Source: Vreelandella olivaria
GTDB lineage: Bacteria > Pseudomonadota > Gammaproteobacteria > Pseudomonadales > Halomonadaceae
Length of the DNA stretch: 64,000 nucleotides
Direction: 5' to 3'
Assembly: GCF_023507745.1 (NCBI RefSeq)
Contig: NZ_JALPZO010000020.1
Span: 1-64,000 of the forward strand
This document shows, one piece after another, positions 3,035-64,000 of the stretch. The notes below the pieces were generated by a model that was given only the letters and a program-made list of their open reading frames with translations, did not search any database and was not told where the DNA came from. The position numbers were made by a program, and so were the translations under genes. Positions within the stretch are counted from its first letter, which is position 1; every line of letters starts with the position of its first letter.

Positions 3035-3036
3035 AT

Positions 3037-3048
3037 TGGTCTATACCA
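3037..3048. promoter_or_regulatory. Candidate GntR (PhnR-like) operator before phnW
   Basis: The sequence TGGTCTATACCA is a 12-bp near-perfect palindrome. It is the exact reverse complement of TGGTATAGACCA at 6997-7008, before the binding-protein gene of the same locus. A TATTAT -10-like hexamer (3052-3057 on the minus strand) lies just upstream, so a bound repressor would cover the transcription start. Operator function is inferred from symmetry, duplication and the GntR gene at 7124-7834. Confidence 0.65.
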
Positions 3049-3087
3049 GATAATAAACACAGCGTAGCCGCTGCCGCAGTGAGCTGT

Positions 3088-4782: not shown

Positions 4783-5903
4783 GGCTGACTGCTCCCGGCT
4801 GGGTACAGACGTGCAGCGTCCGCAGGAAAATGAATGCTTAACACTTGCCCTAGCTGTAACACGAGGGCGGTGCTGTCCCGGCTTGGCACATCGGCAAGCA
4901 GCGTTTGCCCGGTACCCTGTACACGTAGGGCCACCCGCTGAAACGCACCTAAAAACTCGATACCGGTGACCTCCCCCATCAGTTCACTTTGGGTTCGGCT
5001 TAGCGCGACCGCCTCTGGCCGAATAGCCAGCTGGATAGGCAGCCCCTGGGCATAATGATGTGGCTGGCAGTCACAGTGCGTGCTACCCAGCTGTACCCGA
5101 TGGTTGGTCCCTGCGGTCACTTCTAAAAAGTTCATGGTGCCAATAAACGAGGCTACAAAAGCACTGGCGGGCTGGTGATAAATCTCTGCGGGGGTGCCTA
5201 CCTGCTCAATCACGCCATGGTTCATCACCACGATGCGGTCGGCCATGGTCAACGCCTCTTCCTGGTCATGGGTCACCATAATGGTGGTCACGCCAAGACG
5301 CGCCTGCAGAGCTTTAATTTGGCTACGCAGATGGGTGCGCACCCGGGCATCCAGTGCCGATAGCGGCTCGTCCAGCAGCAGTAAGCCAGGTTCCATGGCG
5401 AGCGCTCGCGCCAGCGCGACCCGCTGCTGCTGACCGCCGGAAAGCGCCGCCGGGTACTTATCTTCGCTGCCGCCCAGGTCCACCAGAGCGAGCAACTCAG
5501 TTACCCGGGAGCGGATGCCCACCCGATTTATCCGACGATTGCGCAACCCATACGCTACGTTATCGAAGACGGTCAAATTGGGGAACAGTGCGTACGACTG
5601 GAAGACAATGCCAAAATCCCGCGCCTGTGGAGGCAGCCTGGAAATGTCCTTGCCACGCTGAATCAGCGTGCCCGTGCTCTGTCGGGTCAGCCCTGCAATG
5701 GTGCGCAGCAAGGTGGTTTTACCGCAGCCGGAGGGGCCTAAAAAACAGATAAACTCGCCTTCCTGAATCTCTAACGTAATCTTATCCAGCGCAGTGAAAC
5801 TACCGAAGCACTTAGTGACGTTGTCAATGCTTAGATGGGTGGAGGTTGAGTGGGATGTCGCCGCCGGGTGAGCCGTCAGCGGCGATGTCATTGTCGTTTG
5901 CAT
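4779..5903 (-). CDS. phnT: ATP-binding subunit of the AEP ABC transporter
   Basis: This is a 374-residue ATPase of the CysA/PotA/FbpC type. It has Walker A GPSGCGKTT, the signature LSGGQQQRVALARAL, Walker B LLLLDEPLSALD and the switch histidine in MVTHDQEEAL, followed by a C-terminal TOBE-like region of about 120 residues. The start at 5903 (MQTTM) is preferred over an upstream ATG at 5936, since GGAG lies five bases before it and the longer start would run into an intergenic hairpin. It powers the fused permease encoded next. The gene name follows the Salmonella AEP transporter and rests on context with phnW and phnX. Confidence 0.88.
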   Translation of the reverse strand: MQTTMTSPLTAHPAATSHSTSTHLSIDNVTKCFGSFTALDKITLEIQEGEFICFLGPSGCGKTTLLRTIAGLTRQSTGTLIQRGKDISRLPPQARDFGIVFQSYALFPNLTVFDNVAYGLRNRRINRVGIRSRVTELLALVDLGGSEDKYPAALSGGQQQRVALARALAMEPGLLLLDEPLSALDARVRTHLRSQIKALQARLGVTTIMVTHDQEEALTMADRIVVMNHGVIEQVGTPAEIYHQPASAFVASFIGTMNFLEVTAGTNHRVQLGSTHCDCQPHHYAQGLPIQLAIRPEAVALSRTQSELMGEVTGIEFLGAFQRVALRVQGTGQTLLADVPSRDSTALVLQLGQVLSIHFPADAARLYPAGSSQP

Positions 5904-45332: not shown

Positions 45333-46364
45333 TTATGCGCTATCCATCTGAATCTCTTTCACCACGATATCGCCATCGACCACAATTGGCTCATCGTCGA
45401 GGAACAGCGAACAGTTGCGCATGGGAATATCCAAATGGCAGGCCGTATCGTTAGGGCCACCCAACTCATTGTTTGGGCCGGTTGAGAACATCACATTGCC
45501 ATAGAAGCTGCGCGGCTCCATCCCCATTCCTCCGGGGAACTCTCCTGGCACCATGCGGTGCCATTTGGCATCCGGGTTCATTCCCCATCCCACATGGCTC
45601 ATCCCCAGGCCACGTTGGTCGTTGAAGCTGTCCATGTAGGATTTCACCAGCTCAGCGTCCAGGCCGCCGCGAATATCCGTAATCCAGCCCTTCTCGATGG
45701 TGTAGGTGATGGGTTCGCGGACGTAGATATTCTGTGGCAGCAGAATATCGCCAGGTGCTACCACAATCGTACCGTCCACACCGTCATCATCCCCGCCTGT
45801 AAACACGAAGCCGGATGGCCAGTGATCCCAGCGACCGGGTTCGTCGGTACAGGCATACTCCGCCACGGTGGGGTAGGTATTAAGCTGGTAGGTCACATCC
45901 GTGCCATGGTGGGAGGTAATGCGCATGATCTTGGCCTTGGCGAGCAGCTCTGCGGCTATTTCGACCTTCTCTTTCAGCTCCTTGGATGGCAGCATGCGGG
46001 CCAGTAGCTCGGGAGGCTCCACAGCAGTAAGCACACGTGTGCCCGCTGCCTGGATCGCCATCTGCTCGGGTGAAAAGAGCAGGAAAATACAGTCGATAAG
46101 CATGTCGCAGTTTTTAAGCGCCTCAACAGCTTCAGGCATACTCGCCAACCCCGTTGTACCTACATTCCAACCTCCCACCGCCAGGGGAGCGGGTAGCCGC
46201 ATGTGATACATATTGGCACCCAGCCGCTGCCCAGCTGCCATAAAGGCATCAGCATAGTCGAGCCGATCATTGCCCTGGGTCAGCACAATGAGTTTCTCGC
46301 CGTCTCTTACACCGGACATTTTCAACTGGTGAAGACAGATTTCAGCAAAGCTCGCGTGATCCAT
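45333..46364 (-). CDS. nicX: 2,5-dihydroxypyridine 5,6-dioxygenase NicX
   Basis: This 343-residue non-haem iron dioxygenase has the aminopeptidase-related NicX fold. It opens 2,5-dihydroxypyridine to N-formylmaleamate. Strong marks are AVEPPELLARMLPS, DEPGRWDHWPSGFVF, MSHVGWGMNP and CHLDIPMRN; the latter His-x-Asp and an upstream Glu are the known iron ligands of NicX. AGGAG lies five bases before the ATG. It ends the minus-strand nicA-nicB-symporter-nicX operon. It could be mislabelled a leucyl aminopeptidase, but the context with nicC and nicD fixes the role. Confidence 0.93.
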   Translation of the reverse strand: MDHASFAEICLHQLKMSGVRDGEKLIVLTQGNDRLDYADAFMAAGQRLGANMYHMRLPAPLAVGGWNVGTTGLASMPEAVEALKNCDMLIDCIFLLFSPEQMAIQAAGTRVLTAVEPPELLARMLPSKELKEKVEIAAELLAKAKIMRITSHHGTDVTYQLNTYPTVAEYACTDEPGRWDHWPSGFVFTGGDDDGVDGTIVVAPGDILLPQNIYVREPITYTIEKGWITDIRGGLDAELVKSYMDSFNDQRGLGMSHVGWGMNPDAKWHRMVPGEFPGGMGMEPRSFYGNVMFSTGPNNELGGPNDTACHLDIPMRNCSLFLDDEPIVVDGDIVVKEIQMDSA

Positions 46365-48192: not shown

Positions 48193-51100
48193 TCAGGGAG
48201 TAGAGTAAGTATTGTTGTGGTGAGGCTGGCGTAGTTCGGCAACGCGTTGTTCAAGTTGTTGCCAAGAAGGTGCATCAGGGGCAAAGCGCGCCCTGAGATA
48301 GGCTGCCAGTGTGGCAACCTGGGTGTTGCTGAAACTGTCGGCAAAGCCAGGCATGGCGCCAATACCAACAACGTGTTCGGCATGGACACCCCCCAGGATC
48401 GACTGAATAACGTTATCGGGCCGTTCACTGTGCAGATTGGTATTCAATGCCAGCGAAGTAGCCGCGCGATTGAACGAAGGCAACCCGCTATCGACGTGAC
48501 ATGAGGCGCAGGCACCGGCGAACAGCTGTTCCCCCTGCTCCATGCCGGGCGGGCTTGTCATGGTGCGGGATATGCGCTGCTGCGCCTCCGCCAGCTCAGC
48601 TTCACTGTTTCCCGCCGGGGCACCCATCTGGGCGGCAACATAGTGTGCAATAGCGCGCACATCATACTCGGGCAGCTCGCCCAACCCAGCCACCACCGGC
48701 GCCATGGGGCCAGAAGCGACCCCATGCAGCGGGGACTCCCCATGACGCAGGTAGTCATAAAGCGAATGCTCGCTCCAGGGAATCGGCGCCCTGGATAAGG
48801 TGTTGAGCGGTGGTGCCTCCCAGCCGTCCACCATCGCACCGGCAAAGTAGCGCTCACCGCTCTGCTCAGCGCCCATGGCGTTACGCGGCGTATGGCAGGC
48901 ACTGCAATGCCCCAGCCCTCCGGCTAAGTAAGCGCCACGATTGTAGAGTTCGCTTTGTTCTGGATCAGGCTGGAAGGGGGTCGGGTCATGATAGAGCGCA
49001 TTCCACCCGGCCATCAGGGCACGCAGGTTATAAGGGAAGGAGAGAGCATTGGCAGGCGTGTCCGCTGAGACAGCGGGCTGCGCCATCAAGTAGGCATAAA
49101 GGGCTTGTAAATCGGCATCACTGGTTTTGGCAAAGGCGGTGTAAGGAAAAGCAGGATACAGGTGGCTGCCATCACGGCTGATCCCATGGCGCATCGCACG
49201 CTCAAAGGCTGCGTATGACCACTGCCCTATTCCCGTCGCCTCATCCGGCGTGATGTTGGTGCTATACAGGGTGCCAAATGGTGTTTCGAAGGCACGTCCA
49301 CCGACATTCTCAACGCCTCCTTCGGCAGTATGGCATGCGGCACAGTCTCCAGCGGCAGCAACTAAACGCCCACGCTCAATGGTTTCAGCTGAGTACAGCG
49401 TGGGGGCTGGCCTTGATACAGGAGCGATAGCCCCCTTCCACGGCCATGCCATGGCAGCACTGCCTGCTATCGTCGTCAATGCCGCTGCCGCAAACCAACG
49501 ACGGCGTAAACGACGTGTCGCGGGCGAGGGAGATAGCGTCTCATCGCCCGCGACCTGCTCCTGCAAGGCCTGGCGCACCCGATTGGCCGTAAACGGTGGT
49601 TGCCGAAAGCGCACGCCGGTTGCATCGAACAGGGCATTGGCAATCACGGCTACCCCTGGCGCAAAATCCACCTCCTTCAATGGGGACGCGGGTTCAGTGG
49701 TCGCTAGCTGATCGTTTCTGGTGGGTTCTATTGCCGGAGACGTCAGCCGTGACAGCGAGGTTCGTTCCTGCTCTTTTTTGTCAACCGTGCCGTTTGGCTC
49801 ATCGCTCCATTGGTCAAAAGCCGGCGTATGCCCCAGCAGTGGCCGTGCCTCTCCTAACACTCGCTCCTGTAGTGTCTGCTGCAAACGGGCCGTATCCACG
49901 TACTCACCGGCATCCTGGCCTACTACCAGGCGGGTTATCCGCACCCCACCGGTAATACGATTGACTTCAATATCCGCAATCCAGGCCGAACGCACCCCCG
50001 ATTTCTGGCGCTGCTCCCGGTCAGGTAACTGGGCATAGGCAACACCACGCCCTCTAAGCATTTCGCTCGGTCCACGAGGCGCCTGCTGCGGGGGCGTCTG
50101 CCACTGCACTTGCCTGGCAACCGACTCGATTAATTCAATACCCCGCTTGTCCTCCAGGTGGCGAAGACGAAAATCCAGTGGGTCCTGGCCGCTCTCCCTG
50201 GCCATTTCATCAATAAAGGATTCCCGGGCGAAGGTCTGCTGAACATTCAACAGGGTGGGATTGGTCGGGGCGCCAGCGGGGTAACCGGTGTGGGCCGTCA
50301 GAGTCTCCTGGCGAAACACATAGGGTTCATTAAACGCATAGGAAGCGGTGGCGGTAGGTTCATCTGCACTGGTCTGGAGCTTAAGCCGCCCGCTGAGCCA
50401 TAGGCCAACCGCGGCCACCTCGCTGGGGGCCAGGGTCTGGCGGTAGCTGTACTCTTCGATACGGCCCTCTTCACTTACTACAGCACTCAACTGCATCCGC
50501 TGCGCCAATCCCAGCGCGGTCATATCCCTGGCATAGCGCTCATCCAGCCAGACCGCCACGGGGCATGCCAGTATCTGCGAAAGCAGCGCCGCATCAATGG
50601 CGGCGTCGTCACCACAGTGGCGGCCCAAGCCAGTCGCACACAGAGGTGCCTCCGTGTTACTGGAGAACAGCGCTATCTGATCCTCATCCAACCCGGTCAG
50701 CATCTTCAGGTCATGTTTGAGCGTATTTGGCGTTGTTGTTTGCCCCCATACGTTCAGCTGGTTTTGCTGGTAATCAGCAACGACCCAACCCGGCTGTTCC
50801 CCCCAGCGCATTCGGCCTGGCCAGCCGTAATGATGGCTGGCTTCACGGTGAGCGCCCGCTGACGAGACCCCCTTAGCCTGGGGCGCCAGGGCATCGGTTG
50901 GCGTCTGAATGCCTTTCAGCGGAGACACCAGGGAGACCTTGGTCGGTTGCTGCCAACGAAGATGGAGACGCGCAGCAGCGTCATAAGCAGCCTCCAGGCT
51001 ATCCGCCACCACGCCGACAAAGTTGTTCTCAATCACCACGTCGGCCCGGTAGGGCAAGGCTGCCACCTCCGACTTATCCACATGCTCAAGCCGGGCACTT

Positions 51101-51222
51101 TCAAACTGCTCACCATCCCACACATAGAAAGGCGGCCTGACCACGACTCCATAGTGGACATGGGCAAGCCCTACCGGTAAGGCTTGGCGCCGTGGCGTAG
51201 AGGACAACGGTGAATCACTCAT
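48193..51222 (-). CDS. nicB: NicB-like protein: shortened molybdenum domain fused to three cytochrome c domains
   Basis: This protein of about 1009 residues corresponds to NicB, the large subunit of nicotinate dehydrogenase. The first ~550 residues resemble a molybdopterin-binding chain but begin at the hammerhead region: about 200 N-terminal residues, with the HVDLGTGIRTSL-type cofactor motif, are missing, and the QxHGN-like segment is replaced by LQERVLGEAR. A membrane segment (about 572-595) leads to three periplasmic haem motifs CAACH, CSACH and CASCH near residues 626, 772 and 904. ATG 51222 overlaps nicA by eight bases, with GGGAG upstream. Pseudomonas NicB is longer (about 1187). Confidence 0.85.
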   Translation of the reverse strand: MSDSPLSSTPRRQALPVGLAHVHYGVVVRPPFYVWDGEQFESARLEHVDKSEVAALPYRADVVIENNFVGVVADSLEAAYDAAARLHLRWQQPTKVSLVSPLKGIQTPTDALAPQAKGVSSAGAHREASHHYGWPGRMRWGEQPGWVVADYQQNQLNVWGQTTTPNTLKHDLKMLTGLDEDQIALFSSNTEAPLCATGLGRHCGDDAAIDAALLSQILACPVAVWLDERYARDMTALGLAQRMQLSAVVSEEGRIEEYSYRQTLAPSEVAAVGLWLSGRLKLQTSADEPTATASYAFNEPYVFRQETLTAHTGYPAGAPTNPTLLNVQQTFARESFIDEMARESGQDPLDFRLRHLEDKRGIELIESVARQVQWQTPPQQAPRGPSEMLRGRGVAYAQLPDREQRQKSGVRSAWIADIEVNRITGGVRITRLVVGQDAGEYVDTARLQQTLQERVLGEARPLLGHTPAFDQWSDEPNGTVDKKEQERTSLSRLTSPAIEPTRNDQLATTEPASPLKEVDFAPGVAVIANALFDATGVRFRQPPFTANRVRQALQEQVAGDETLSPSPATRRLRRRWFAAAALTTIAGSAAMAWPWKGAIAPVSRPAPTLYSAETIERGRLVAAAGDCAACHTAEGGVENVGGRAFETPFGTLYSTNITPDEATGIGQWSYAAFERAMRHGISRDGSHLYPAFPYTAFAKTSDADLQALYAYLMAQPAVSADTPANALSFPYNLRALMAGWNALYHDPTPFQPDPEQSELYNRGAYLAGGLGHCSACHTPRNAMGAEQSGERYFAGAMVDGWEAPPLNTLSRAPIPWSEHSLYDYLRHGESPLHGVASGPMAPVVAGLGELPEYDVRAIAHYVAAQMGAPAGNSEAELAEAQQRISRTMTSPPGMEQGEQLFAGACASCHVDSGLPSFNRAATSLALNTNLHSERPDNVIQSILGGVHAEHVVGIGAMPGFADSFSNTQVATLAAYLRARFAPDAPSWQQLEQRVAELRQPHHNNTYSTP

Positions 51223-51703
51223 CAACTGTCTCCCGCCTTGCCGCCGCATCGGCTAATACGGCTTGCCGGGCAGCTTCAAGAATTTCCAGGTGGGTACCAC
51301 AGCGGCAGAGATTATGCTCAAGGGCAGCTCGAATCTGCTCTTGGGTAGGCGAGGGGTGGTGATTCAGCAGCGCCCGAACACTGATGATCATGCCATTCAG
51401 GCAGTAGCCACACTGTGCGGCCTGAGCATCAATGAAGGTTTGCTGAACGGGGTCGAGCCGATCCCCCCGTGCCATACCCTCCAGGGTGATCACCTCATGG
51501 CCTGCCACCGCAGTCACAGGTAGCACACAGGCGCGTGCTGCTTTGCCGTCCACCAGGACACTGCATGCACCACATTCGCCCAGCCCACAGCCATATTTTG
51601 GGCCATTAAGTGCCAGGTCATTGCGCAGCACGTCAAGCAGTGACGTATTAGCGGCTACTGACAGTTCGCAAGACTGCCCATTTACGTTCAGCTTCAGTGT
51701 CAT
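51215..51703 (-). CDS. nicA: Nicotinate dehydrogenase small subunit NicA
   Basis: This 162-residue protein carries two [2Fe-2S] clusters: a plant-type one with YGCGLGECGACSVLVDG and a later cysteine, and an all-helical one with CGYCLNGMI and CRCGTH. It passes electrons from the molybdenum site that hydroxylates nicotinate at C6. It is the first gene of the leftward nic operon, divergent from nicC. Confidence 0.93.
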   Translation of the reverse strand: MTLKLNVNGQSCELSVAANTSLLDVLRNDLALNGPKYGCGLGECGACSVLVDGKAARACVLPVTAVAGHEVITLEGMARGDRLDPVQQTFIDAQAAQCGYCLNGMIISVRALLNHHPSPTQEQIRAALEHNLCRCGTHLEILEAARQAVLADAAARRETVDE

Positions 51704-54171
<2,468 letters not shown>

Positions 54172-54186
54172 ACAAGGCCAAAGATC

Positions 54187-54954
54187 ATGACACACACCAC
54201 CCTGACCAAGACCTACCGTATCGGCCAGATAGTGCCAAGCTCCAACATTACCATGGAAACGGAAATTCCAGCCATGCTCACAGCGCGGCAACTCATCCGG
54301 TCTGAGCGCTTCACTTTCCACTCCAGCCGTATGCGCATGAAAACCGTCAGCAAAGGCGAACTGGCCGCCATGGACGCTGAATCGGACCGCTGCGCACTGG
54401 AGCTTTCCGATGCTGCCGTGGATGTGATGGGGTATGCCTGTCTGGTTGCCATTATGGCAATGGGTCCCGGTTATCATCGCGAGTCGCAAAAGCGCCTGCG
54501 CAGCCGCACCGCAGAGAACGGCTGCGACACTCCCGTGGTATCAAGCGCAGGCGCACTGGTCGATGCCCTGGGTGTCATGAAGGCCAAACGGGTAGTAGTG
54601 GTGGCGCCCTATATGAAGCCACTGACCGAGCTGGTGGTGGATTACATTCGCCAGGAGGGCATAGAAGTACTGGACTACCGGGCGCTGGAAATTCCCAACA
54701 ACCTGGATGTCGCCCGCCACGACCCCGCCAATTTGCCGGACATCGTCGCCAGCCTTGATCTCAGCAACGTGGATGCCATCGTGCTTTCCGCCTGTGTTCA
54801 GATGCCCTCACTGCCTGCCGTTGCCAAGGTAGAGGCGCTAACGGGTAAACCGGTGGTTACAGCTGCCATTGCCACGACCTACGCCATGCTGAAAGCGCTC
54901 GATTTAGAGCCTATTGTGCCCGGCGCGGGCGCTTTACTGTCTGGCGCTTACTAG
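54187..54954 (+). CDS. nicE: Maleate isomerase NicE
   Basis: This 255-residue maleate cis-trans isomerase makes fumarate, which enters the citric acid cycle. Both catalytic cysteines are present: one in VMGYACLVAIM and one in VLSACVQMPS, unlike the related protein at 18849-19580, which keeps only the second. It opens with GQIVPSSNITMETEIP, a family hallmark. Confidence 0.93.
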   Translation: MTHTTLTKTYRIGQIVPSSNITMETEIPAMLTARQLIRSERFTFHSSRMRMKTVSKGELAAMDAESDRCALELSDAAVDVMGYACLVAIMAMGPGYHRESQKRLRSRTAENGCDTPVVSSAGALVDALGVMKAKRVVVVAPYMKPLTELVVDYIRQEGIEVLDYRALEIPNNLDVARHDPANLPDIVASLDLSNVDAIVLSACVQMPSLPAVAKVEALTGKPVVTAAIATTYAMLKALDLEPIVPGAGALLSGAY

Positions 54955-54963
54955 GGAGTAGCC

Positions 54964-55647
54964 ATGATGACGCACTCCAACCAGGCATCCCACGCCAACG
55001 ATGTGGGCGATAACTCCTTAAACCATAACTACCAAGGGGTATGGGATGGGCGTATTGGCTTTGGTAATAAGGCCGTACTGCTCATCGTCGACTTTATGCA
55101 GGGCTATACCACACCAGAGTCGCCGCTGTTTGCCCCTGGAGTGGTGGAAGCCGTCGCCAATATGCCACCGTTGCTTGGTGCTGCACGGCGTACGCATACC
55201 CCCGTCATCCATACCAATATTCTCTATCACGCCCCGGATCAGATGGATGGCGGCATTTGGGTCAAGAAAGCGCCGGTGATGCGCGCCATGGTGGCAGGTA
55301 ACCCGTTCGCTGAATTTTGTCCGGAAGTTACCCCCCGGCAGGATGAACTGGTGATTACCAAACAGTATGCCAGTGCCTTCTTTGGCACCTCGCTGGCCAC
55401 CACACTGGTTGCCATGGGTATCGACACCCTGATCATCACAGGGTGCTCAACCAGCGGCTGCATTCGTGCCACCGCGGTGGATGGCCTTCAGCATGGCTTC
55501 CGGGTGATGGTCGTGCGTGACTGCGTGGGTGATCGTCACCCCACGCCTCACGAAGCCAACCTGTTCGATATTGATAGCAAATATGGCGATGTCATCAATA
55601 GCGACGAGGCCATCCACCATCTATTGGCCCATCCGTATCACCCATAA
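54964..55647 (+). CDS. nicF: Maleamate amidohydrolase NicF
   Basis: This 227-residue isochorismatase-fold amidase releases ammonia from maleamate. The Asp-Lys-Cys triad is seen in LLIVDFMQGYT, VITKQYASAF and ITGCSTSGCIRAT. GGGAG lies upstream of the ATG. It is the fourth enzyme gene of the operon. Confidence 0.92.
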   Translation: MMTHSNQASHANDVGDNSLNHNYQGVWDGRIGFGNKAVLLIVDFMQGYTTPESPLFAPGVVEAVANMPPLLGAARRTHTPVIHTNILYHAPDQMDGGIWVKKAPVMRAMVAGNPFAEFCPEVTPRQDELVITKQYASAFFGTSLATTLVAMGIDTLIITGCSTSGCIRATAVDGLQHGFRVMVVRDCVGDRHPTPHEANLFDIDSKYGDVINSDEAIHHLLAHPYHP

Positions 55648-55793
55648 CCCGCTGCGGCAGCAGAGCGACATTGTTATATGGCCTGGCTGCCGATCCAAAG
55701 AGGAGACAAAAACAGCATCAACGCACGCCAGCAAGCACCCATAACCATAAGACGCACCGCGTTGAACCCTGACAAATCGTATAGGTAACTATC

Positions 55794-56768
55794 ATGAAAG
55801 CACCACATCTGATCATATCATCCACACTGCTGCTGAGCCTGCTGTGGACAGCACCTCTGTTGGCGGATGATTTTCCTGAAAAGCCCATCAACATTGTTGT
55901 TCCCTGGCCGACGGGGGGGGCGTACGACCTTGCTGCACGACTGATGGCTGAGCATGCCAGTCACACCTTTTCGGTACCGTTAGTCGTCCAGAACGTTACC
56001 GGCGCGGCAGGATCAACCGGGGTAAGGCATGTGGCAGATGCCACTGCCGATGGCTATACCATCGGTGTCATGGGTACCCATGCGATCGCCCAGAGTTATA
56101 TGAACCCCAACGCGACTGCCTTGGATGATCTCACACCCTTGGTATTCATTGGCCCGGAACCTGCCGCGCTGGCAGTCACTCAAGATGCGGATATTGACGA
56201 TGTAGCGGCTTACCTCGACACGCTCAACGAGGCACCGGGCAGTGTCATCAACGGCAACGATTCTCCCGGCGGGTTCTCTTATATTGCCGCCACCATGCTT
56301 GAAAACCAGTTTGATGTGGAACTGACCAAGATTCCCTATCAAGGGTATGCACCTACCGTTTCGGCACTGCTGTCCGGCGAAGTGATGTCAGCGCTGTTAC
56401 CTATCCCGCTATTGGCCGACCAACATGCTGCCGGGCAACTGCGCCTTTTAGGCGTGGCCGCACAAGAGCGCCATCCTTTCACGCCTGAAGTGCCTACCTT
56501 CCAGGAGCAGGGCTATGACTTCATCGCGGAAGATTTCTTCATGCTCTATCTGCCCGGTGACGTGCCCGAAGAACGCAGAAACAAGCTGGCAGAGATGTTC
56601 TATGCACTGCTCCAGGATGCATCGTTCCAGGAAGCCGCCAGCGATATCGGCCTGATGATTCAACCCAGGCCCCAAGACGAGACAGCACGCTACCTGGAGC
56701 AGCGTGCTGACGAAGTCTACGACATTCTAGCCGCGTCGGGTTTAGTGGATGATTCACTGACACGCTAG
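55794..56768 (+). CDS. TctC-family binding protein in the nic operon
   Basis: This 324-residue receptor has a signal peptide ending near APLLADD, then the Bug-type opening PINIVVPWPTGGAYDLAARL. Receptors of this family bind aromatic or heteroaromatic carboxylates as well as citrate. The nic context suggests nicotinate or 6-hydroxynicotinate. It is 146 bases downstream of nicF and may share the nicC transcript. Confidence 0.9.
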   Translation: MKAPHLIISSTLLLSLLWTAPLLADDFPEKPINIVVPWPTGGAYDLAARLMAEHASHTFSVPLVVQNVTGAAGSTGVRHVADATADGYTIGVMGTHAIAQSYMNPNATALDDLTPLVFIGPEPAALAVTQDADIDDVAAYLDTLNEAPGSVINGNDSPGGFSYIAATMLENQFDVELTKIPYQGYAPTVSALLSGEVMSALLPIPLLADQHAAGQLRLLGVAAQERHPFTPEVPTFQEQGYDFIAEDFFMLYLPGDVPEERRNKLAEMFYALLQDASFQEAASDIGLMIQPRPQDETARYLEQRADEVYDILAASGLVDDSLTR

Positions 56769-56788
56769 CGTTGAGCGGAGCACAGCCA

Positions 56789-57331
56789 ATGACCACTTTA
56801 GCTTTCCGGCCAGTCGCCGCTTGGCGCGATATGGCCTGTGGCACCTTGTTCTGTGGGTTTGCCCTGGTGGGACTGGTTAGCGTCGCTAATAGTCCGGCAC
56901 TTATGAACAGTCTGGGCCAAGGGCTGGACCCCGGCCCCGCCCTACTGCCACTAGTCACACTGGGACTGCTGCTCACCGGTGGCACGTTGATTCTGGCGAA
57001 GGGTGCGTGGCGGTGGGTGCAACACACTCGTAACCACGGCCCTACCATAGCAAGCACCCTTCCCGCCGTAGCCGAAAGATCCCCACCGGCCATCAGCCAA
57101 CACCTTCATGCGGCGGCACTGCTGGGAACACTTGCGCTCCTGCCAAACATTGTTCAATGGCTGGGCTTCTTCCCTGCTGCGCTTTCCGTCGCGACGCCCT
57201 GGCTGGTCTGGCTGGGCTACCGACGCACCCGACGGTTCGCCCAGGCCGTGCTGCTGGGTTGTCTGATATCCAGCCTGCTATGTCTCAGCCTCTATCTGAT
57301 CTTTATCACACTGCTTGACGTCCCTTTGTGA
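56789..57331 (+). CDS. TctB-family small permease in the nic operon
   Basis: This 180-residue membrane protein has four hydrophobic segments in TctB layout (FCGFALVGLVSVANSP and two late helices). ATG at 56789 has GGAG eight bases upstream and is preferred to a TTG at 56771. It overlaps nothing upstream and lies between the receptor and tctA. Confidence 0.86.
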   Translation: MTTLAFRPVAAWRDMACGTLFCGFALVGLVSVANSPALMNSLGQGLDPGPALLPLVTLGLLLTGGTLILAKGAWRWVQHTRNHGPTIASTLPAVAERSPPAISQHLHAAALLGTLALLPNIVQWLGFFPAALSVATPWLVWLGYRRTRRFAQAVLLGCLISSLLCLSLYLIFITLLDVPL

Positions 57332-57353
57332 TGCCCCAGTGCAGGAGCCGAAC

Positions 57354-58874
57354 ATGCTGATTGAAAGTTTTATGTCTGCCCTGATAGAGACACTGCTTTC
57401 CCCCTGGGGATTGTTACTCGCCGCGCTGGGTGCACTACTAGGCATTATCCTCGGGGCACTGCCAGGCGTCAGTTCTACGATGGCGCTGGCCATTTTGTTA
57501 CCACTGAGCTTCAGCATGGATGCCCATCTGGCAATCCTATTCCTGCTGTGCGTCTTTGTCGCCAGCGTTTACGGAGGCTCGATATCCGCCATTCTGATCA
57601 ATATTCCAGGCACCCCAGGCGCCATTGTGACCCAACTGGACGGCCATCCAATGGCCAAGGCAGGCAAAGCCAGAGAAGCACTAGTGTATGCACTGGTTGC
57701 CTCCACGGTAGGTGGCGCCTTTGGTCTGGGCCTGCTGGTGATGACTGCCCCCCTGCTCGCAACCGTCGCCATGAGCTTCCGCAGCCCTGAATTCGCTGCT
57801 GTCGCCGTTTTCGGGTTGGTACTGCTGGCTTATGCTTCCCCCGGCACTACCGTTCGCGGCTTGCTGGTCGGTGCCATTGGCCTGATATGCGGCATGGTCG
57901 GTTTCGATACGTTAACCGATGTTCCACGCTTCACTTTCGACACCCGCACCTTACAGGGGGGCGTGGAGCTGGTGCCGCTCTGCGTAGGATTATTTGGCCT
58001 GGCGGAAGTGCTTAAACATCTCCACGCTTCCCACCAGGCCGCGCCTGCGGTCAGCATACAGGCGACGCAGCGCTCCCAGCTGAAAGTGCGGGCACTGCTA
58101 AAACGTTGGAAATCCATGCTACGGGGGTCACTGATTGGTGCCTTTGTTGGCGCTATCCCTGCCGCCGGTTCGGCCATCGCTGTCGCGATTGCCTACGCCC
58201 AGGAAGTGCGTTTTTCCAAACACCCTGAACAGTTCGGACAGGGTGCCGTTGAAGGAGTGGTCGCCCCGGAGGCCGCCAACAGTTCGAGCATTGGAGGCAC
58301 CATGATTCCCATGATGACACTGGGCGTACCAGGGGATGCCATCACGGCGGTGCTGATGGGGTCGCTATTGATTCATGGTTTACGACCGGGGCCGATGCTA
58401 TTTGCTGAAAACCCCCACATTGTTTCCAGCATCTATGCAGGCTTTTTTATCGCGCTGCTGCTAACCCTCATCATTGGCCTTCTGCTGATGCGCTGGCTTC
58501 CCCTGATTCTGCGTATTCCTTCCCATGTGCTACTGATCGGCATTGCCCTGCTCTGCGTTGTCGGCGCCTATGCTATCCGCAACAGCATGGCCGATGTGTA
58601 TATCATGCTGTTTTTCGGAGCACTGGGGTATTTGCTACACCTGTTATCGCTGCCCAGCGCACCGCTGGCGTTCGGCCTGATTCTGGGGCCACTGCTGGAA
58701 GAGAACCTGCGCCGCAGTCTGATTCTTGGGCGTGGCTCCTGGGATATTTTCCTACACAGTCCAATTGCCATGAGCCTCTTTGCTCTGTCGATCTTTGCCA
58801 CTGCCCTACCGTTACTGGCCCCTCTGTGGGTGCGCCTGAAAAGCGACCTCCAGCGCATGAAGGTGCCTTTTTGA
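57354..58874 (+). CDS. TctA-family large permease in the nic operon
   Basis: This 506-residue protein has about twelve hydrophobic segments and the duplicated motifs GALPGVSSTMALAILLPLSF and IPGTPGAIVTQLDGHPM. ATG at 57354 with AGGAG six bases upstream is preferred; the frame is open to 57315 inside tctB. It ends eight bases from the convergent nicR gene. Confidence 0.92.
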   Translation: MLIESFMSALIETLLSPWGLLLAALGALLGIILGALPGVSSTMALAILLPLSFSMDAHLAILFLLCVFVASVYGGSISAILINIPGTPGAIVTQLDGHPMAKAGKAREALVYALVASTVGGAFGLGLLVMTAPLLATVAMSFRSPEFAAVAVFGLVLLAYASPGTTVRGLLVGAIGLICGMVGFDTLTDVPRFTFDTRTLQGGVELVPLCVGLFGLAEVLKHLHASHQAAPAVSIQATQRSQLKVRALLKRWKSMLRGSLIGAFVGAIPAAGSAIAVAIAYAQEVRFSKHPEQFGQGAVEGVVAPEAANSSSIGGTMIPMMTLGVPGDAITAVLMGSLLIHGLRPGPMLFAENPHIVSSIYAGFFIALLLTLIIGLLLMRWLPLILRIPSHVLLIGIALLCVVGAYAIRNSMADVYIMLFFGALGYLLHLLSLPSAPLAFGLILGPLLEENLRRSLILGRGSWDIFLHSPIAMSLFALSIFATALPLLAPLWVRLKSDLQRMKVPF

Positions 58875-58882
58875 TGAACCGC

Positions 58883-59365
58883 TTAGGAGGCAGGGTCCGC
58901 ATTCATCTTTTCCAGCAGATGCATCAAAGCAACCCGCTCTGCCGGATTCAGGTTGCGCATCGTCTGATCGCTGATCAGCTTGGCATTAGGCACCATGTCT
59001 TCAACCAGCACTGCGCCTGGCTCGGTAATCACGACCATGACTTTGCGCTGATCCTTGGGGTCGGTGGTCAACGTAATCCATCCACGGGCTTTGAGTCGTT
59101 TGATCACGCCGCGGATTGTCGCCGGATCAATGGCCGTGGCATTAACAATATCCGTCAACGAACTTGGGCCTCTTTCCATCACCGTACACAGGGTCACGAA
59201 CTGAATAGCCGTCAATTGCTTGTCACAGCTATGGCGCTGAAAGATGGCAATATGCCGCTGATACGCCTTGCGCAACAGATGCCCCACCTGCTCAGAAAAG
59301 TCATACCCCTGCTCATACGGGGTCGGGTGCTCATTGGCGGCGCGCACAGAACTGTCCTTTATCAT
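58883..59365 (-). CDS. nicR: MarR-family regulator NicR
   Basis: This 160-residue winged-helix protein has the MarR core (PSSLTDIVNATAIDPATIRG as recognition region and RGWITLTTDPKDQRKVMVVI as the wing). Nicotinate clusters in other proteobacteria carry a MarR repressor, NicR, released by 6-hydroxynicotinate; position and family support the same role. ATG 59365 with AGGA upstream is chosen; the frame is open to 59458. It diverges from the large-subunit gene at 59600. Confidence 0.82.
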   Translation of the reverse strand: MIKDSSVRAANEHPTPYEQGYDFSEQVGHLLRKAYQRHIAIFQRHSCDKQLTAIQFVTLCTVMERGPSSLTDIVNATAIDPATIRGVIKRLKARGWITLTTDPKDQRKVMVVITEPGAVLVEDMVPNAKLISDQTMRNLNPAERVALMHLLEKMNADPAS

Positions 59366-59599
59366 TCCATATCCTTGGCAAGTGAACGAGAAATGAGGGC
59401 GGGCATAGTGCCGGAGAGTCAGCGGTGAACGTAATGAATACACTGAAACTTGATGCACTTAGCTACCCGTCAGGCTTGAAGGCCGTCCTATTAGGCCCCC
59501 TGCATTTATGGTGTACACATTATAATTTTATATTAGACTCGGGCAAGCTCTCTTCGTGGTATGTGCCCGATCACAACCAACTTGAACAAGGAGGCACAC
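59366..59599. promoter_or_regulatory. Divergent region between nicR and the second molybdenum-subunit gene
   Basis: This gap of 234 bases includes GTGTACACATTATAA at 59511-59525, of which GTGTACAC is a perfect palindrome and TATAAT (59521-59526) could be a -10 element. It resembles boxes in the nicA-nicC gap. AAGGAGG precedes the gene at 59600 by six bases. Confidence 0.6.
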
Positions 59600-61861
59600 A
59601 TGAAATCCTATGACCGACAGTCACTTCTGTATGGAGAAGACCTTCTTGTTGTTTACAGAGACCCGGTCATCACCCCCACGCCAGCACCAGGACAACCCGG
59701 TACACGCTCGGATTTTGTACCCACAGAACCCGAGCTGTTTATTGCGATACTGAACAGTGGGCACGTTATTGCCTTTAACGGCCATGTTGATCTGGGTACC
59801 GGCATTCGCACATCGCTCTCCCAAATTGTCGCCGAAGAGCTTGAGGTGCCTTTAGCTTCCGTGACCATGGTACTGGGTGACCCCTTCGAGGTACCCAACC
59901 AAGGCCCCACCATCGCCAGCGCCACCATCCAGATAACCGCGGAACCGCTGCGCCGGGCAGCAGCACAGGCGCGGGAGTACTTATTGTCACTGGCGAGCCA
60001 ACATTTCAACATGCCTGCGGACACTTTACGTTGCCGCGAGGGACAGGTTGCTCCCGTAGACGCCAGTCAGTCGGCCATAGGCTACGGTGAATTACTGAGC
60101 GGTAAACGGCATGCCCTGAAGCTGGCCGACACGGTTGTACTGAAACAGGCCAAGCACTACACCCTGGTGGGCAAAGCGGCACCGCGGGTGGATATTCCTG
60201 ACAAGGCTACCGGACGCCTGACCTTCGTACATGATCTCAGGGTGCCCAATATGCTGCATGGCCGGGTTATCCGCCCGCCCTATAGCGGCCATGACCGGGG
60301 AGCATTCGTAGGCAATAGCCTGCTATCTGTCGATGAAACGACTGTTATTAATATGCCGGGCGTGATTAAGGTAGTGGTCATCGGCGACTTTGTTGGTGTA
60401 GTGGCAAAAAGAGAAGAACAGGCAGCCGAGGCAGCGAAGCACCTGAAAGTCACCTGGCGCCATCCTGATGGCCTGCCGGATTTGTCCGATATCGCCCGAG
60501 CCCTGGATGCGTTACCGGCCCAGCGCCGCCTGCTTCTCGAAGAGGGTGATATTGCGAAGACGCTGCAAAGTGCCCATTACCGCGTTCAACGCACTTACCT
60601 CTGGCCTTTTCAGCTTCATGGCTCCATCGGCCCCTCATGCTCGGTTGCCGATTGGCAGAATAACCAACTGCATGTATGGTCCGGCACCCAGAACCCCCAC
60701 AGCTTAAGAGCGGACTTGTCACGCCTGATGGCGTTGGATGAGGGCGCCATCACCATTACCAGAATGGAGGCTTCCGGCTGCTATGGCCGTAACTGCGCTG
60801 ATGATGTAGGTGCCGATGCGGCCCTTTTGTCCCGGGCGGTGGGATGCCCTGTGCGGGTTCAGCTGACTCGCGAGCAGGAACACCTCTGGGAGCCCAAGGG
60901 AGCCGCCCAGCGTATGGATGTGGAGGCGGGTATCGATAACCAGGGCAACCTCTCTGGCTACCGCTTTGTCTCACGCTACCCTTCCAATAATGCACCTACC
61001 CTGGCATTGCTGCTGACCGGTCAGGAAGCGCCCAGTGACATCCCCTTTCAAATGGGGGACCGAACCTCCGTTCCCCCCTATCACTATCCCCATCGGAGCA
61101 TCGCCTGTGATGATGTTCCCACACTCGTTCGTGCTTCCTGGTTACGCGGCGTTTCCGCCCTTCCTAACGCCTTCGCCCATGAAAGCGTGATAGATGAACT
61201 CGCTTATGCCGCCCAGCAAGACCCGGTGGCCTATCGGCTGGCGCAATTGCGCGACACCCGTGCCATAGCGCTTATTGAAGCATTAGCCGAACGAGCCAAC
61301 TGGCAACCTCGGGTTGCCTGCTCGTTCCCCCAGGACGCTGCTGACTGGCTTTATGGACGCGGTTTCGCCTATGCCCAATACGTGCATAGTAAATTTCCAG
61401 GCTTCGGAGCCGCTCTGGCAGCCTGGGTTGTCGAACTCAAAGTACACCGTGGCAGTGGCAAAATCGTGATTGAGAGGGTGCTTGTTGGGCAGGACGCCGG
61501 GCTGATGGTCAATCCATCGGGCGTGCGCCATCAGGTACATGGCAATATTATTCAAACGCTTGGGCGCACGCTGAAAGAGCGGGTGACGTTCGAGGATGGC
61601 TTGCCGACCAGCCGTGAATGGGGAGGCTACCCGCTATTACGTTTTTCCGAGTTACCCGATATTCAGCTTATGCTGCTTGATCGACCCGACCAGCCCCCGC
61701 TGGGAGTGGGTGAGTCCACATCGCTGCCTGGAGCACCGGCCATCGCCAATGCCCTGTTTGATGCGACCGGTATACGCTTCACCCAACCACCGTTTACACC
61801 TGAAACGGTGCGACAACACTTGACTCAGCGTGTTGAACGTTCTGCACAGGTGGCAATGTAA
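59600..61861 (+). CDS. Molybdenum-hydroxylase large subunit, NicB/IorB type, without cytochrome domains
   Basis: This 753-residue protein holds a complete cofactor-binding chain of the permuted IorB/NicB order. An N-terminal domain has GHVDLGTGIRTSLSQIVAEE (about 60-80) and DPFEVPNQGPTIASATIQIT; next come the hammerhead region, GCYGRNCADD, VHGNIIQTLG and the catalytic glutamate in LGVGESTSLPGAPAIANAL. It has no haem motif. It may supply the true molybdenum site for nicotinate hydroxylation with NicA, or act on another heterocycle. AAGGAGG fixes the start at 59600. xdhC-like gene follows, overlapping by one base. Confidence 0.88.
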   Translation: MKSYDRQSLLYGEDLLVVYRDPVITPTPAPGQPGTRSDFVPTEPELFIAILNSGHVIAFNGHVDLGTGIRTSLSQIVAEELEVPLASVTMVLGDPFEVPNQGPTIASATIQITAEPLRRAAAQAREYLLSLASQHFNMPADTLRCREGQVAPVDASQSAIGYGELLSGKRHALKLADTVVLKQAKHYTLVGKAAPRVDIPDKATGRLTFVHDLRVPNMLHGRVIRPPYSGHDRGAFVGNSLLSVDETTVINMPGVIKVVVIGDFVGVVAKREEQAAEAAKHLKVTWRHPDGLPDLSDIARALDALPAQRRLLLEEGDIAKTLQSAHYRVQRTYLWPFQLHGSIGPSCSVADWQNNQLHVWSGTQNPHSLRADLSRLMALDEGAITITRMEASGCYGRNCADDVGADAALLSRAVGCPVRVQLTREQEHLWEPKGAAQRMDVEAGIDNQGNLSGYRFVSRYPSNNAPTLALLLTGQEAPSDIPFQMGDRTSVPPYHYPHRSIACDDVPTLVRASWLRGVSALPNAFAHESVIDELAYAAQQDPVAYRLAQLRDTRAIALIEALAERANWQPRVACSFPQDAADWLYGRGFAYAQYVHSKFPGFGAALAAWVVELKVHRGSGKIVIERVLVGQDAGLMVNPSGVRHQVHGNIIQTLGRTLKERVTFEDGLPTSREWGGYPLLRFSELPDIQLMLLDRPDQPPLGVGESTSLPGAPAIANALFDATGIRFTQPPFTPETVRQHLTQRVERSAQVAM

Positions 61862-62829
61862 TGCAGCATCTCGATTTACAGGTGATCGAACGAGCACTGC
61901 AATGGGCCAACCAGGGACAGCCGCTATGGCTATGTACGGTATTGGCAACGTTTGGCTCTGCACCCAGAGAGCCTGGCGCCATGATGGTGGCTTGCTCTGC
62001 CCAGGAGCACACCGGCTCGCTATCAGGAGGGTGTGTCGAAGAGGATTTCCTGACACGGCTGCATAATGGGGAGTTTTCAGACCCGGTTCAGGTCATTCAC
62101 TACGGCGGAGGCGAAGGGGCCAGTCAGGTGCAGCTACCCTGTGGAGGCCGCCTGGATGTATTGGTGGAGTATCTGAAACCCAATGAGTCCACCCTTACCC
62201 ACCTGGAGGTCATACACGCCACCCTGCTGGGGCGCCACCCCCTGATTCGCCGCATCAAGCTGGATGGCAGCGGCAGAAACTTGCTACCCGCCGATGCACC
62301 AGGGCCTGCTGTCACGCGGGATGCCCACACGGTGGCTATCCGCATAGGCCCTGCATTACGGCTGGTCATTGCGGGTATTTCAGCCATTGCCACCCCCTGC
62401 GCCCTGTTCGCCACTTCCCTTGGCTTTGAAGTTATCGTTTGCGACCCACGGGACGATATCCGGCGGCGGTTCGCCGCTCCAGGCGTGGAAGTTCAGGCAG
62501 TGCATCCCGCCACCTTTATCGCCTCCGGTGGTTGCCATGCCGGTACTGCGGTGGTGGCGCTTACCCATGACCCCCGCCTGGACGACCTGGTGATGATGGA
62601 AGCGGTACGTACCGATGCGTTTTATATTGGCGTGATGGGTTCGACAGCGAACTCTCACAAACGGGCCGAACGACTGCAACGCTCTGGAGGGCTGAGTGAA
62701 GCACAGCTACAACGCATCACCATGCCAATCGGCCTGGCACTGGGCAGTAAAACACCGGCTGAAATTGCCCTGGCGGTGATGGCCGATATCGTACGAACCC
62801 ACCGTGGCAAACACCGCCAGGAGCTGTAG
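61861..62829 (+). CDS. XdhC/CoxI-family molybdenum cofactor maturation protein
   Basis: This 322-residue protein has the XdhC N-terminal region (LATFGSAPREPGAMMVACS, SGGCVEEDF) and a Rossmann-like C-terminal domain ending with IGVMGSTANSHKRAERL and PIGLALGSKTPAEIALAV. XdhC proteins sulfurate and deliver the cofactor to the molybdenum hydroxylase encoded beside them. Coupling to the large-subunit gene (TAATG) supports this for the 59600 protein. Confidence 0.88.
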   Translation: MQHLDLQVIERALQWANQGQPLWLCTVLATFGSAPREPGAMMVACSAQEHTGSLSGGCVEEDFLTRLHNGEFSDPVQVIHYGGGEGASQVQLPCGGRLDVLVEYLKPNESTLTHLEVIHATLLGRHPLIRRIKLDGSGRNLLPADAPGPAVTRDAHTVAIRIGPALRLVIAGISAIATPCALFATSLGFEVIVCDPRDDIRRRFAAPGVEVQAVHPATFIASGGCHAGTAVVALTHDPRLDDLVMMEAVRTDAFYIGVMGSTANSHKRAERLQRSGGLSEAQLQRITMPIGLALGSKTPAEIALAVMADIVRTHRGKHRQEL

Positions 62830-63042: not shown

Positions 63043-64000
63043 ATGATCAGGTTTTCTCGTTTCTCCCTGACACAAAAACTACTCGCTGCTGTGGCACTTC
63101 CGCTGCTGATAGTGGCACTCATACTTGGCCTGATCGTTAATCAGCAGCTCAATCATGCCATTTCTGGAATGATCGACAACGCCAGTACCCGCCAGGTGGC
63201 AGCCCGCGCTGATGAAGTCAGCCGCTGGATTACCGGCTACCGAAACTGGATTGATGTCCTGGCGCAGGACGAACGCCTATCTGCAGACGTCCCTCTCTCC
63301 GAACACCTTGGATGGTTAGAGAAGCGCTACCCTCCCGGTGGCACTATCGAGTCACTGTTCTTCACTGACGCCACCGGGGCGACGCTGACCCATGCCGATG
63401 TGCGCCTCGAAATTGCCGAGCGCGGCTATTTTAAAACACTGGTGAGCGACGGCACCGCCGACAGCCTGTTGACGGACCCGGTTGTCTCAATGGTCAGTGG
63501 GCTGCCTACCGCCATCGTGGCGGATACGGTCTTCGATGAGCGTGGTAACCGTGCTGGCCTGTTAGGTATTACCGTTTCCATGGCAGCAGTTTCTGATGTG
63601 ACCTCCTCCATTAATGTTGGCGAAGGGAGCTATGGCTGGCTGATTGACAGCAGCGGCACGGTGATTGCCCATCCCAATGAGGCGTATCGCATGAACCTGA
63701 ACTATACCGACGCCGATAGCCAGGGCTACCAGGGTATGAACGCCTTGAGCCAGGAAATGCTCAGCGGTCAGCCAGGCTCTGGTGAAATCACCCTTCCCAA
63801 TGGTGAACGTAACGTCGTAATGTGGAACCCGGTAGAGGGCACCTCCTGGGTGGTGGGTGTCACGGTTCCTGTTAGCGCCTTTACCACCGTGACCAGTAAC
63901 CTGCTGACATCGCTACTGGTGGCAGGCACACTCCTGCTGGCTATTTTGCTGGTCATCGTCGGCTATGCCACCCGGCGCGCCCTCGCCCCTATCAAGCAGA
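63043..64000 (+). CDS. Chemoreceptor with dCache sensor (cut by window end)
   Basis: Only the first 319 residues are visible, and the frame runs off the right edge. An N-terminal helix (about 14-32), a periplasmic region of about 245 residues with FFTDATGATLTHAD, ERGYFKTLVS and GWLIDSSGTVIAHPN, and a second helix (about 287-310) are typical of double-Cache methyl-accepting proteins. A HAMP and signalling domain would follow. AGAGG lies six bases before the ATG. A GGDEF-type output is possible, since the output domain is not seen. Its place beside the nic genes suggests attraction to nicotinate or a related compound. Confidence 0.85.
   Translation, partial: MIRFSRFSLTQKLLAAVALPLLIVALILGLIVNQQLNHAISGMIDNASTRQVAARADEVSRWITGYRNWIDVLAQDERLSADVPLSEHLGWLEKRYPPGGTIESLFFTDATGATLTHADVRLEIAERGYFKTLVSDGTADSLLTDPVVSMVSGLPTAIVADTVFDERGNRAGLLGITVSMAAVSDVTSSINVGEGSYGWLIDSSGTVIAHPNEAYRMNLNYTDADSQGYQGMNALSQEMLSGQPGSGEITLPNGERNVVMWNPVEGTSWVVGVTVPVSAFTTVTSNLLTSLLVAGTLLLAILLVIVGYATRRALAPIKQ

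What the first reader, a model, noticed from the sequence alone, without database searches (positions are those of the whole stretch)
48193..61861. Nicotinate hydroxylase large subunit split between a degenerate cytochrome fusion and a separate intact molybdenum chain
The NicB-like protein (48193-51222) keeps the middle of the molybdenum chain, a membrane segment and three haem motifs, but starts at the hammerhead region. It lacks about 200 N-terminal residues with the HVDLGTG cofactor motif, and its VHGN-like loop is lost. The catalytic-glutamate position still aligns (ASPLKEVDF against LGVGESTSL). The protein at 59600 has all of these but no haem. With one NicA and one XdhC, a three-part enzyme (NicA, intact chain, cytochrome carrier) is plausible. 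This layout differs from the single large NicB known from Pseudomonas.
Basis: partly seen in the sequence, partly recalled or inferred. Interest (0 to 1): 0.72.

Follow-up and report, generated by a model that had tools for sequence, protein, structure and literature searches.

The report
Three-part nicotinate hydroxylase with dead domain
This vitamin-B3-degrading gene cluster appears to build its first enzyme from three proteins, one of which carries a worn-down copy of the catalytic domain fused to a membrane cytochrome; a three-part enzyme of this kind is already in print for other bacteria, but I found no description of the worn-down domain or of the likely move of the catalytic part into the cytoplasm.

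Summary
The NicB-like protein (48193-51249, -) lacks the N-terminal Mo domain (NicA overlaps its start), has lost cofactor and active-site motifs, and ends in a membrane segment and three haem motifs. The 59561/59600-61861 (+) protein is an intact Mo chain without haem. It is not an error: the fusion and the Mo chain occur together in 21 of 151 family genomes, and 49 of 80 named loci show both. The tripartite form is already in print as NicA/NicB1/NicB2 (PMC10269826, PMC4572682).

The detail looks new. The remnant ("pMo") forms one clade inside the NicB clade and is under purifying selection (dN/dS 0.13-0.32), yet has the catalytic Glu in 4 of 25 rows against 54 of 54 Mo chains. Mo chains beside a plain cytochrome have Tat signals (13 of 15 rows by script, all by eye); fused NicB has none in 50, split Mo chains one doubtful hit in 81. 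Best reading: NicA and the Mo chain catalyse in the cytoplasm; NicB2 is a membrane cytochrome whose dead Mo-like domain docks them. Docking, topology and activity are inferred; how electrons reach periplasmic haem is unexplained.

The parts
48193..51249 (-). NicB2-like protein (pMo-cytochrome fusion), 1018 aa; likely start 51222
49543..51150 (-). pMo: degenerate Mo-chain domain, aligned to residues 234-761 of the intact chain; proposed cytoplasmic dock (inferred)
   Evidence: E 8e-75; key sites lost; dN/dS 0.13-0.32
49672..49674 (-). codon at the catalytic-glutamate position (E here, not conserved among relatives)
49447..49497 (-). predicted signal-anchor / membrane segment (moderate in this protein: hydropathy 1.41, net charge +3 before, +2 after)
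   Evidence: clearer in relatives: charge higher before than after in 56 of 61 fusions of this kind and 40 of 40 fused NicB
48196..49422 (-). triheme cytochrome c domain (CxxCH at 49330-49344, 48892-48906, 48496-48510)
   Evidence: (8gy3_A E 1e-110)
51215..51703 (-). NicA, two [2Fe-2S] domains (Fer2, Fer2_2), no Tat-like motif found
59561..61861 (+). intact Mo chain (NicB1-like), likely start 59600, no Tat signal, no haem motif
59783..59803 (+). HVDLGTG motif of the N-terminal Mo domain
   Evidence: invariant in A2 (21 rows); 0 of 61 pMo rows
61532..61546 (+). QVHGN motif
61712..61714 (+). catalytic glutamate E718 (GVGE); role recalled from the xanthine oxidase family
   Evidence: E in 25/25, 16/16, 3/3 and 10/10 Mo rows
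61861..62829 (+). XdhC-family Mo-cofactor maturation protein
58883..59458 (-). NicR-like MarR regulator, divergent from the Mo chain
52187..55647 (+). nicC, nicD, nicE, nicF: rest of the maleamate pathway (names by context and recall; domains by Pfam)
45333..46364 (-). NicX-like protein (2,5-dihydroxypyridine dioxygenase; name from context and recall, no Pfam or NCBIfam hit)

Best explanation
The cluster encodes a tripartite nicotinate 6-hydroxylase. NicA (two [2Fe-2S]) and the intact Mo chain (NicB1) form the catalytic unit in the cytoplasm: water-derived oxygen is put on C6 of nicotinate at the Mo centre and electrons pass to NicA. The cytochrome fusion (NicB2) is not a catalyst. It is a membrane-anchored triheme cytochrome c whose N-terminal, cofactor-less Mo-like domain faces the cytoplasm and docks the NicA/NicB1 pair, standing in for the Mo domain of a fused NicB. 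The fusion most likely descends from a fused NicB that was duplicated; one copy kept catalysis and lost the haems, the other kept anchor and haems and lost catalysis. Shown: gene content, conservation, loss of sites, one clade each for pMo and split Mo, purifying selection, and the split of Tat signals by architecture. Inferred: nicotinate as substrate, docking, topology, the duplication. Not explained: how electrons cross from cytoplasmic FeS to periplasmic haem.
For: Both genes in all 21 of 151 family genomes that have the fusion; both in view in 49 of 80 named loci and in five loci of other families (L114 only at its edge, and L114 is by length the same contig as named L185). Sites on one alignment: E718 25/25 split Mo against 4/25 pMo; H353, R529, H660, G661 and N662 25/25 against 0/25. 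Motifs: HVDLGTG 81/81 against 0/61, GCYGRN 81/81 against 0/61. pMo one clade (25 rows, SH-aLRT 99), split Mo one clade (25 rows, 98), both inside the NicB clade. AU test does not reject pMo and split Mo together as one clade (p 0.45). Split haem domains lie among fused-NicB haem domains. dN/dS in 15 close pairs: pMo 0.13-0.32, cyt 0.08-0.16; Mo chain 0.07-0.15 in 14 of them. Of 81 split-clade Mo rows 62 show the fusion in view, none a plain cytochrome and none a fused NicB. Tat signal: separate-cytochrome type 4/4 rows (3 distinct places) plus 9/11 by script and 11/11 by eye in Pseudomonadaceae, where the cytochrome match follows the Mo match within 48-125 bases, too little room for a pMo; fused 0/40 and 0/10; split 1/81 (L172, upstream of the likely start).
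Against: pMo has two to three times the dN/dS of the Mo chain, and in many Burkholderiales only about 0.42-0.44 of it aligns to the window's pMo, which also fits a fading relic; but NicA has a similar dN/dS (0.07-0.26), so the value is not telling by itself. The pMo branch is long and its place unsure; split haem domains do not form one clade. Two of 33 outgroup Mo rows (L029, L059) gave no Tat hit either. In the window protein itself the anchor and its charge bias are weak. A cytoplasmic Mo/FeS unit with periplasmic haems and one helix leaves electron crossing unexplained. Substrate rests on gene context.
Confidence: 0.7

Rival explanations
1. The cytochrome fusion with NicA is the active hydroxylase and the 59600 protein acts on another substrate.
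For: NicA and the fusion overlap; in this protein a glutamate still aligns with the catalytic one.
Against: The fusion lacks the N-terminal Mo domain and the cofactor motifs tested, apart from a G-R pair kept in about half of the pMo rows (R410 in 12 of 25). The Mo chain lies with at least two other nic genes in 48 of the 49 named loci that show both proteins, and the search of this genome with the NicB-like protein found no fused NicB.
Confidence: 0.05
2. pMo is an inert relic: the complex forms through NicA and the haem domain alone, and pMo is only a tolerated linker.
For: Higher dN/dS than the Mo chain, insertions, and weak alignment of much of it in many Burkholderiales.
Against: dN/dS well below 1; no split-clade Mo chain has a plain cytochrome in view (0 of 81 rows, 62 with the fusion in view); shortest open frame before the anchor about 405 residues (Pandoraea) among 61 rows with three haem motifs (frames not cut to a start codon, and rows were chosen for having some pMo match). 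Inside the NicB clade, Tat-less Mo chains go with a haem protein that has a Mo or Mo-like domain before its anchor wherever the partner is in view.
Confidence: 0.2
3. The whole complex works in the periplasm through an unrecognised export route, so there is no electron-crossing problem.
For: Relatives of the separate type have Tat signals; c-type haem is attached in the periplasm (established knowledge).
Against: No convincing Tat signal on split or fused Mo chains (1 of 81, 0 of 40, 0 of 10) or on NicA in the 20 split and 11 fused loci scanned by motif; charge higher before than after the anchor in 56/61 and 40/40. Sec signals were not tested with a dedicated program.
Confidence: 0.12
4. Sequencing or assembly error split one NicB gene.
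For: None beyond the truncated look.
Against: The same layout in 20 other family genomes and 49 named loci, the two genes several kilobases apart, and NicA upstream of the start.
Confidence: 0.01

Closest known systems
Tripartite NicA/NicB1/NicB2 of Burkholderia gladioli, Bordetella and Delftia acidovorans Cs1-4 (PMC10269826, discussion section read; PMC4572682, passages read)
   Same: Three genes for nicotinate hydroxylase. Delftia lists nicB2 next to nicA and nicB1 next to nicF; loci L190, L197 and L198 have the fusion next to nicA and the Mo chain next to nicF in the same gene order. That nicB2 is the fusion and nicB1 the Mo chain is inferred from this order; their sequences were not compared.
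   Different: This one is in Halomonadaceae with the Mo chain divergent from nicR and next to xdhC. The passages read describe neither a degenerate Mo domain nor the missing Tat signal.
Fused NicB with NicA (Pseudomonas putida KT2440 type; P. putida NicB itself is recalled; fused NicB seen in 40 rows and 10 Pseudomonadaceae loci)
   Same: Same domains, no Tat signal, anchor and three haem motifs, Mo domain homologous.
   Different: One protein with an intact Mo domain; here catalysis and haems are on two proteins.
Three-gene type with plain triheme cytochrome (L117, L123, L124, L221-L231; subunit sizes resemble NdhS/NdhL/NdhM of the review PMC10331938, passages read, where the third is called a flavoprotein)
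   Same: Separate Mo chain, NicA-like protein and triheme cytochrome.
   Different: Mo chain has a Tat signal and the cytochrome has no Mo-like domain.
Membrane aldehyde dehydrogenase, PDB 8gy3 (sequence hits only; organism recalled as Gluconobacter)
   Same: Mo large subunit and triheme cytochrome subunit: haem domain E 1e-110, Mo chain E 1e-49.
   Different: The match on its cytochrome chain covers only the haem part of the fusion; substrate differs.

Membership tests
Tripartite nicotinate hydroxylase NicA/NicB1/NicB2 | NicA, an intact Mo chain and a separate cytochrome-bearing NicB2 | tested here: met
Tripartite nicotinate hydroxylase NicA/NicB1/NicB2 | Linked to the maleamate-pathway genes nicC, D, E, F, X, R | tested here: met
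Tripartite nicotinate hydroxylase NicA/NicB1/NicB2 | Converts nicotinate to 6-hydroxynicotinate | not testable with these tools
   no assay; context only
Xanthine oxidase family Mo chain (59561-61861) | MoCoBD_1 and MoCoBD_2 domains, catalytic Glu, cofactor motifs | tested here: met
Xanthine oxidase family Mo chain (48193-51249) | Complete Mo-binding fold with catalytic Glu and cofactor motifs | tested here: not met
   N-terminal domain absent, motifs lost, Glu in 4 of 25 pMo rows
Fused NicB (P. putida type) | N-terminal Mo domain, rest of the Mo chain and haems in one frame | tested here: not met
   two genes
Exported three-gene Mo dehydrogenase (AlDH/NdhSLM type) | Tat signal on the Mo chain and a plain cytochrome | tested here: not met

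The most novel reading that the evidence does not exclude
Nicotinate hydroxylases of the NicB clade have moved their Mo centre from the periplasm to the cytoplasm while keeping periplasmic c-haems, so electrons cross the membrane at a single-helix protein with no known carrier. In the tripartite branch a catalytically dead paralogue domain, born by duplication and complementary loss, has become the cytoplasmic dock that makes this possible.
Probability: 0.35. Interest if true: 0.72.

Novelty: new member of a known kind. Interest (0 to 1): 0.5.

Why it matters
The three-gene layout has been listed in genome papers, and in the Delftia paper the nicB1 product is called an aldehyde dehydrogenase. 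The data here say which protein should be catalytic and which very probably cannot be. They also give a clean pattern of gene architecture against Tat signals, which turns the question of where a membrane-bound, cytochrome-linked nicotinate hydroxylase works and how it passes on electrons into a testable one. It is also a candidate case of complementary degeneration after duplication of a multidomain redox enzyme.

Tried and rejected
Sequencing-error rescue: rejected, because NicA occupies the upstream DNA and the layout recurs in other genomes. NicB-like protein alone active: judged unlikely from lost sites. Regex counts of GVGE, and of the Glu position in the Mo chains, were unreliable because of variant motifs (for example GVGE in 55 of 81 split Mo rows), so alignment columns were used. 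A first IQ-TREE run hit the time limit and was replaced by a quick tree. Mirror-tree distances (pMo-Mo r 0.92; partial given cyt 0.41 for pMo-Mo, 0.22 for pMo-NicA) were not used as proof of contact, since shared ancestry gives the same. A plasmid search listed 224 records with Mo-chain-like matches and was not followed up. Paper searches gave no listing that I recognised as describing the dead domain or the Tat pattern; (8GY3) returned only unrelated papers. Only open-licence papers are held; the 2008 P. putida paper was not held, and the Bordetella paper cited in PMC10269826 was not looked up. Other papers seen only as passages: PMC6837509, PMC6460240, PMC10293998, PMC7688666.

The 81 split-clade rows include 22 without three haem motifs of a partner in view, assigned by neighbours or identity, not all by tree. 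One search scored at most five candidates a genome and at most two, so misses are possible. Three rows (L047, L112, L137) with fewer than three haem motifs in frame were dropped from the pMo sets. The tree and the site table use 79 chosen rows (25 pMo, 25 split, 16 of 40 fused, 3 separate, 10 of 33 outgroup). One saturated pair (window with L033) was left out of the dN/dS ranges, and L020-L021 has no Mo-chain value.
Full report
What is there. The window holds a nicotinate (maleamate-pathway) cluster: nicX-like, a sodium/solute symporter, the NicB-like fusion, nicA, then nicC, D, E, F, a tctCBA transporter set, nicR, the Mo chain, xdhC and a dCache protein.

The two proteins. The fusion aligns to the intact chain only over residues 234 to 761. 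Its likely first codon overlaps the NicA stop. Pfam finds a sub-threshold match to MoCoBD_1 plus cytochrome c domains, while the 59561 chain has both Mo domains above threshold. Among solved structures the haem domain is nearest to the cytochrome chain of the aldehyde dehydrogenase 8gy3, and the Mo chain to that entry's large chain.

Conservation. In the family, 21 of 151 genomes have the fusion and the same 21 have the Mo chain. All 20 fetched regions hold nicA next to the fusion, nicC, nicR and the Mo chain; in two of them (L049, L050) my coordinates cut the fusion. Beyond the family the same layout appears in L111, L112, L114, L115 and L116 (L114 shows only the edge of the fusion) and in 49 of 80 named loci, among them Alloalcanivorax, Endozoicomonas, Caballeronia, Achromobacter, Cupriavidus, Pandoraea and Comamonas. 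25 of the 80 have a fused NicB. No locus shows both forms within its flanks. The call returned the best 80 of at least 580 relatives, so these are not frequencies in nature.

Dead domain. On one alignment of 79 rows, 25 split, 16 fused, 3 separate and 10 outgroup Mo chains all keep E718, H353 and R529. Of 25 pMo rows, 4 have E at E718, none has H at H353 and none R at R529; Q658 survives in 4 and R410 in 12. Functional roles of these columns (pterin contact, substrate arginine, base) are recalled from xanthine dehydrogenase and were not derived here. The aligned glutamate in the window protein is therefore weak evidence of activity.

Selection and history. dN/dS in close pairs is 0.13-0.32 for pMo, 0.08-0.16 for the haem part and 0.07-0.15 for the Mo chain; NicA, a working subunit, shows 0.07-0.26, so pMo is only somewhat more relaxed than NicA. 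pMo and split Mo each form one clade. The tree warns of long branches. A joint clade of the two, expected if a fused NicB was duplicated and the copies lost complementary halves, is neither shown nor rejected (p 0.45). Split haem domains fall among fused ones but not in one clade, which suggests exchange or weak signal.

Compartment. Mo chains whose cytochrome is a plain separate protein carry a Tat signal: 4 of 4 rows (3 distinct places), and 9 of 11 by script and 11 of 11 by eye. In those 11 the cytochrome match begins 48-125 bases after the Mo match, so there is no room for a pMo. 31 of 33 outgroup rows also carry one; L029 and L059 do not by this test. Fused NicB has none in 40 rows and 10 further Pseudomonadaceae rows. 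Of 81 split-clade rows one (L172) passed the pattern, in frame upstream of the likely start. The segment before the haems is hydrophobic in 59 of 61 fusions and 40 of 40 fused NicB, with more positive charge on the Mo or pMo side in 56 of 61 and 40 of 40 (the best window was picked in each row, which favours a hit). In the window protein the bias is small (+3 against +2) and the hydropathy moderate. Since c-haem is attached in the periplasm (established knowledge), pMo and the Mo chain should be cytoplasmic. Inside the NicB clade a Tat-less Mo chain goes with a haem protein that carries a Mo or Mo-like domain before its anchor wherever the partner is in view (62 of 81 split rows, none with a plain cytochrome; all fused rows by definition). 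This is the main argument for a docking role. The price is an unexplained electron crossing.

Literature. The discussion of PMC10269826 calls the hydroxylase tripartite in B. gladioli and Bordetella. PMC4572682 (passages) lists nicB1 and nicB2 for Delftia. PMC10331938 (passages) reviews other subunit make-ups. None of the searches listed a paper that I recognised as describing the dead domain or the Tat pattern; only open-licence papers are held, and most listings were judged by title and abstract start.

Verdict. The layout is a known kind, and the Halomonadaceae case is a new member. The interest lies in the dead, probably docking domain and in the compartment shift. After the recount only the confidence of the best explanation was changed, from 0.72 to 0.70, because of the weak anchor in the window protein and the NicA comparison.

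Noticed in passing
L047 (about 1863-4866) and L137, Cobetia crustatorum: The fusion gene is broken into three search pieces in different frames, in both records of what is by length the same contig; sequencing error or pseudogene.
   Followed up: no
L135 1-13836 against L149: The nic locus of Marinobacter azerbaijanicus is 97.7% identical over 13.8 kb to that of Billgrantia lactosivorans: recent transfer or contamination.
   Followed up: partly
window 63043-64000: A dCache-domain protein (chemoreceptor-like, cut by the window end) lies beside the cluster and is kept at 73-78% identity beside it in L033-L036, L038 and L045: a candidate nicotinate receptor.
   Followed up: no
window 45333-46364; L042-L044, L046, L047, L052: NicX comes in two forms: the window form (no Pfam or NCBIfam hit) beside the symporter, and a form 44-48% identical placed between nicA and nicC in other genomes.
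   Followed up: no
25 fused-NicB loci within L160-L207: None of the 25 fused NicB loci (23 by title Paraburkholderia) has nicC, D, E, F or X within the fetched flanks, whereas L122, L129 and L130 do; some fused enzymes may have other substrates.
   Followed up: partly
window 55794-58874: A tctCBA tripartite transporter set sits between nicF and nicR here and in some relatives (L034, L041, L045) but not in others: a variable uptake system.
   Followed up: no
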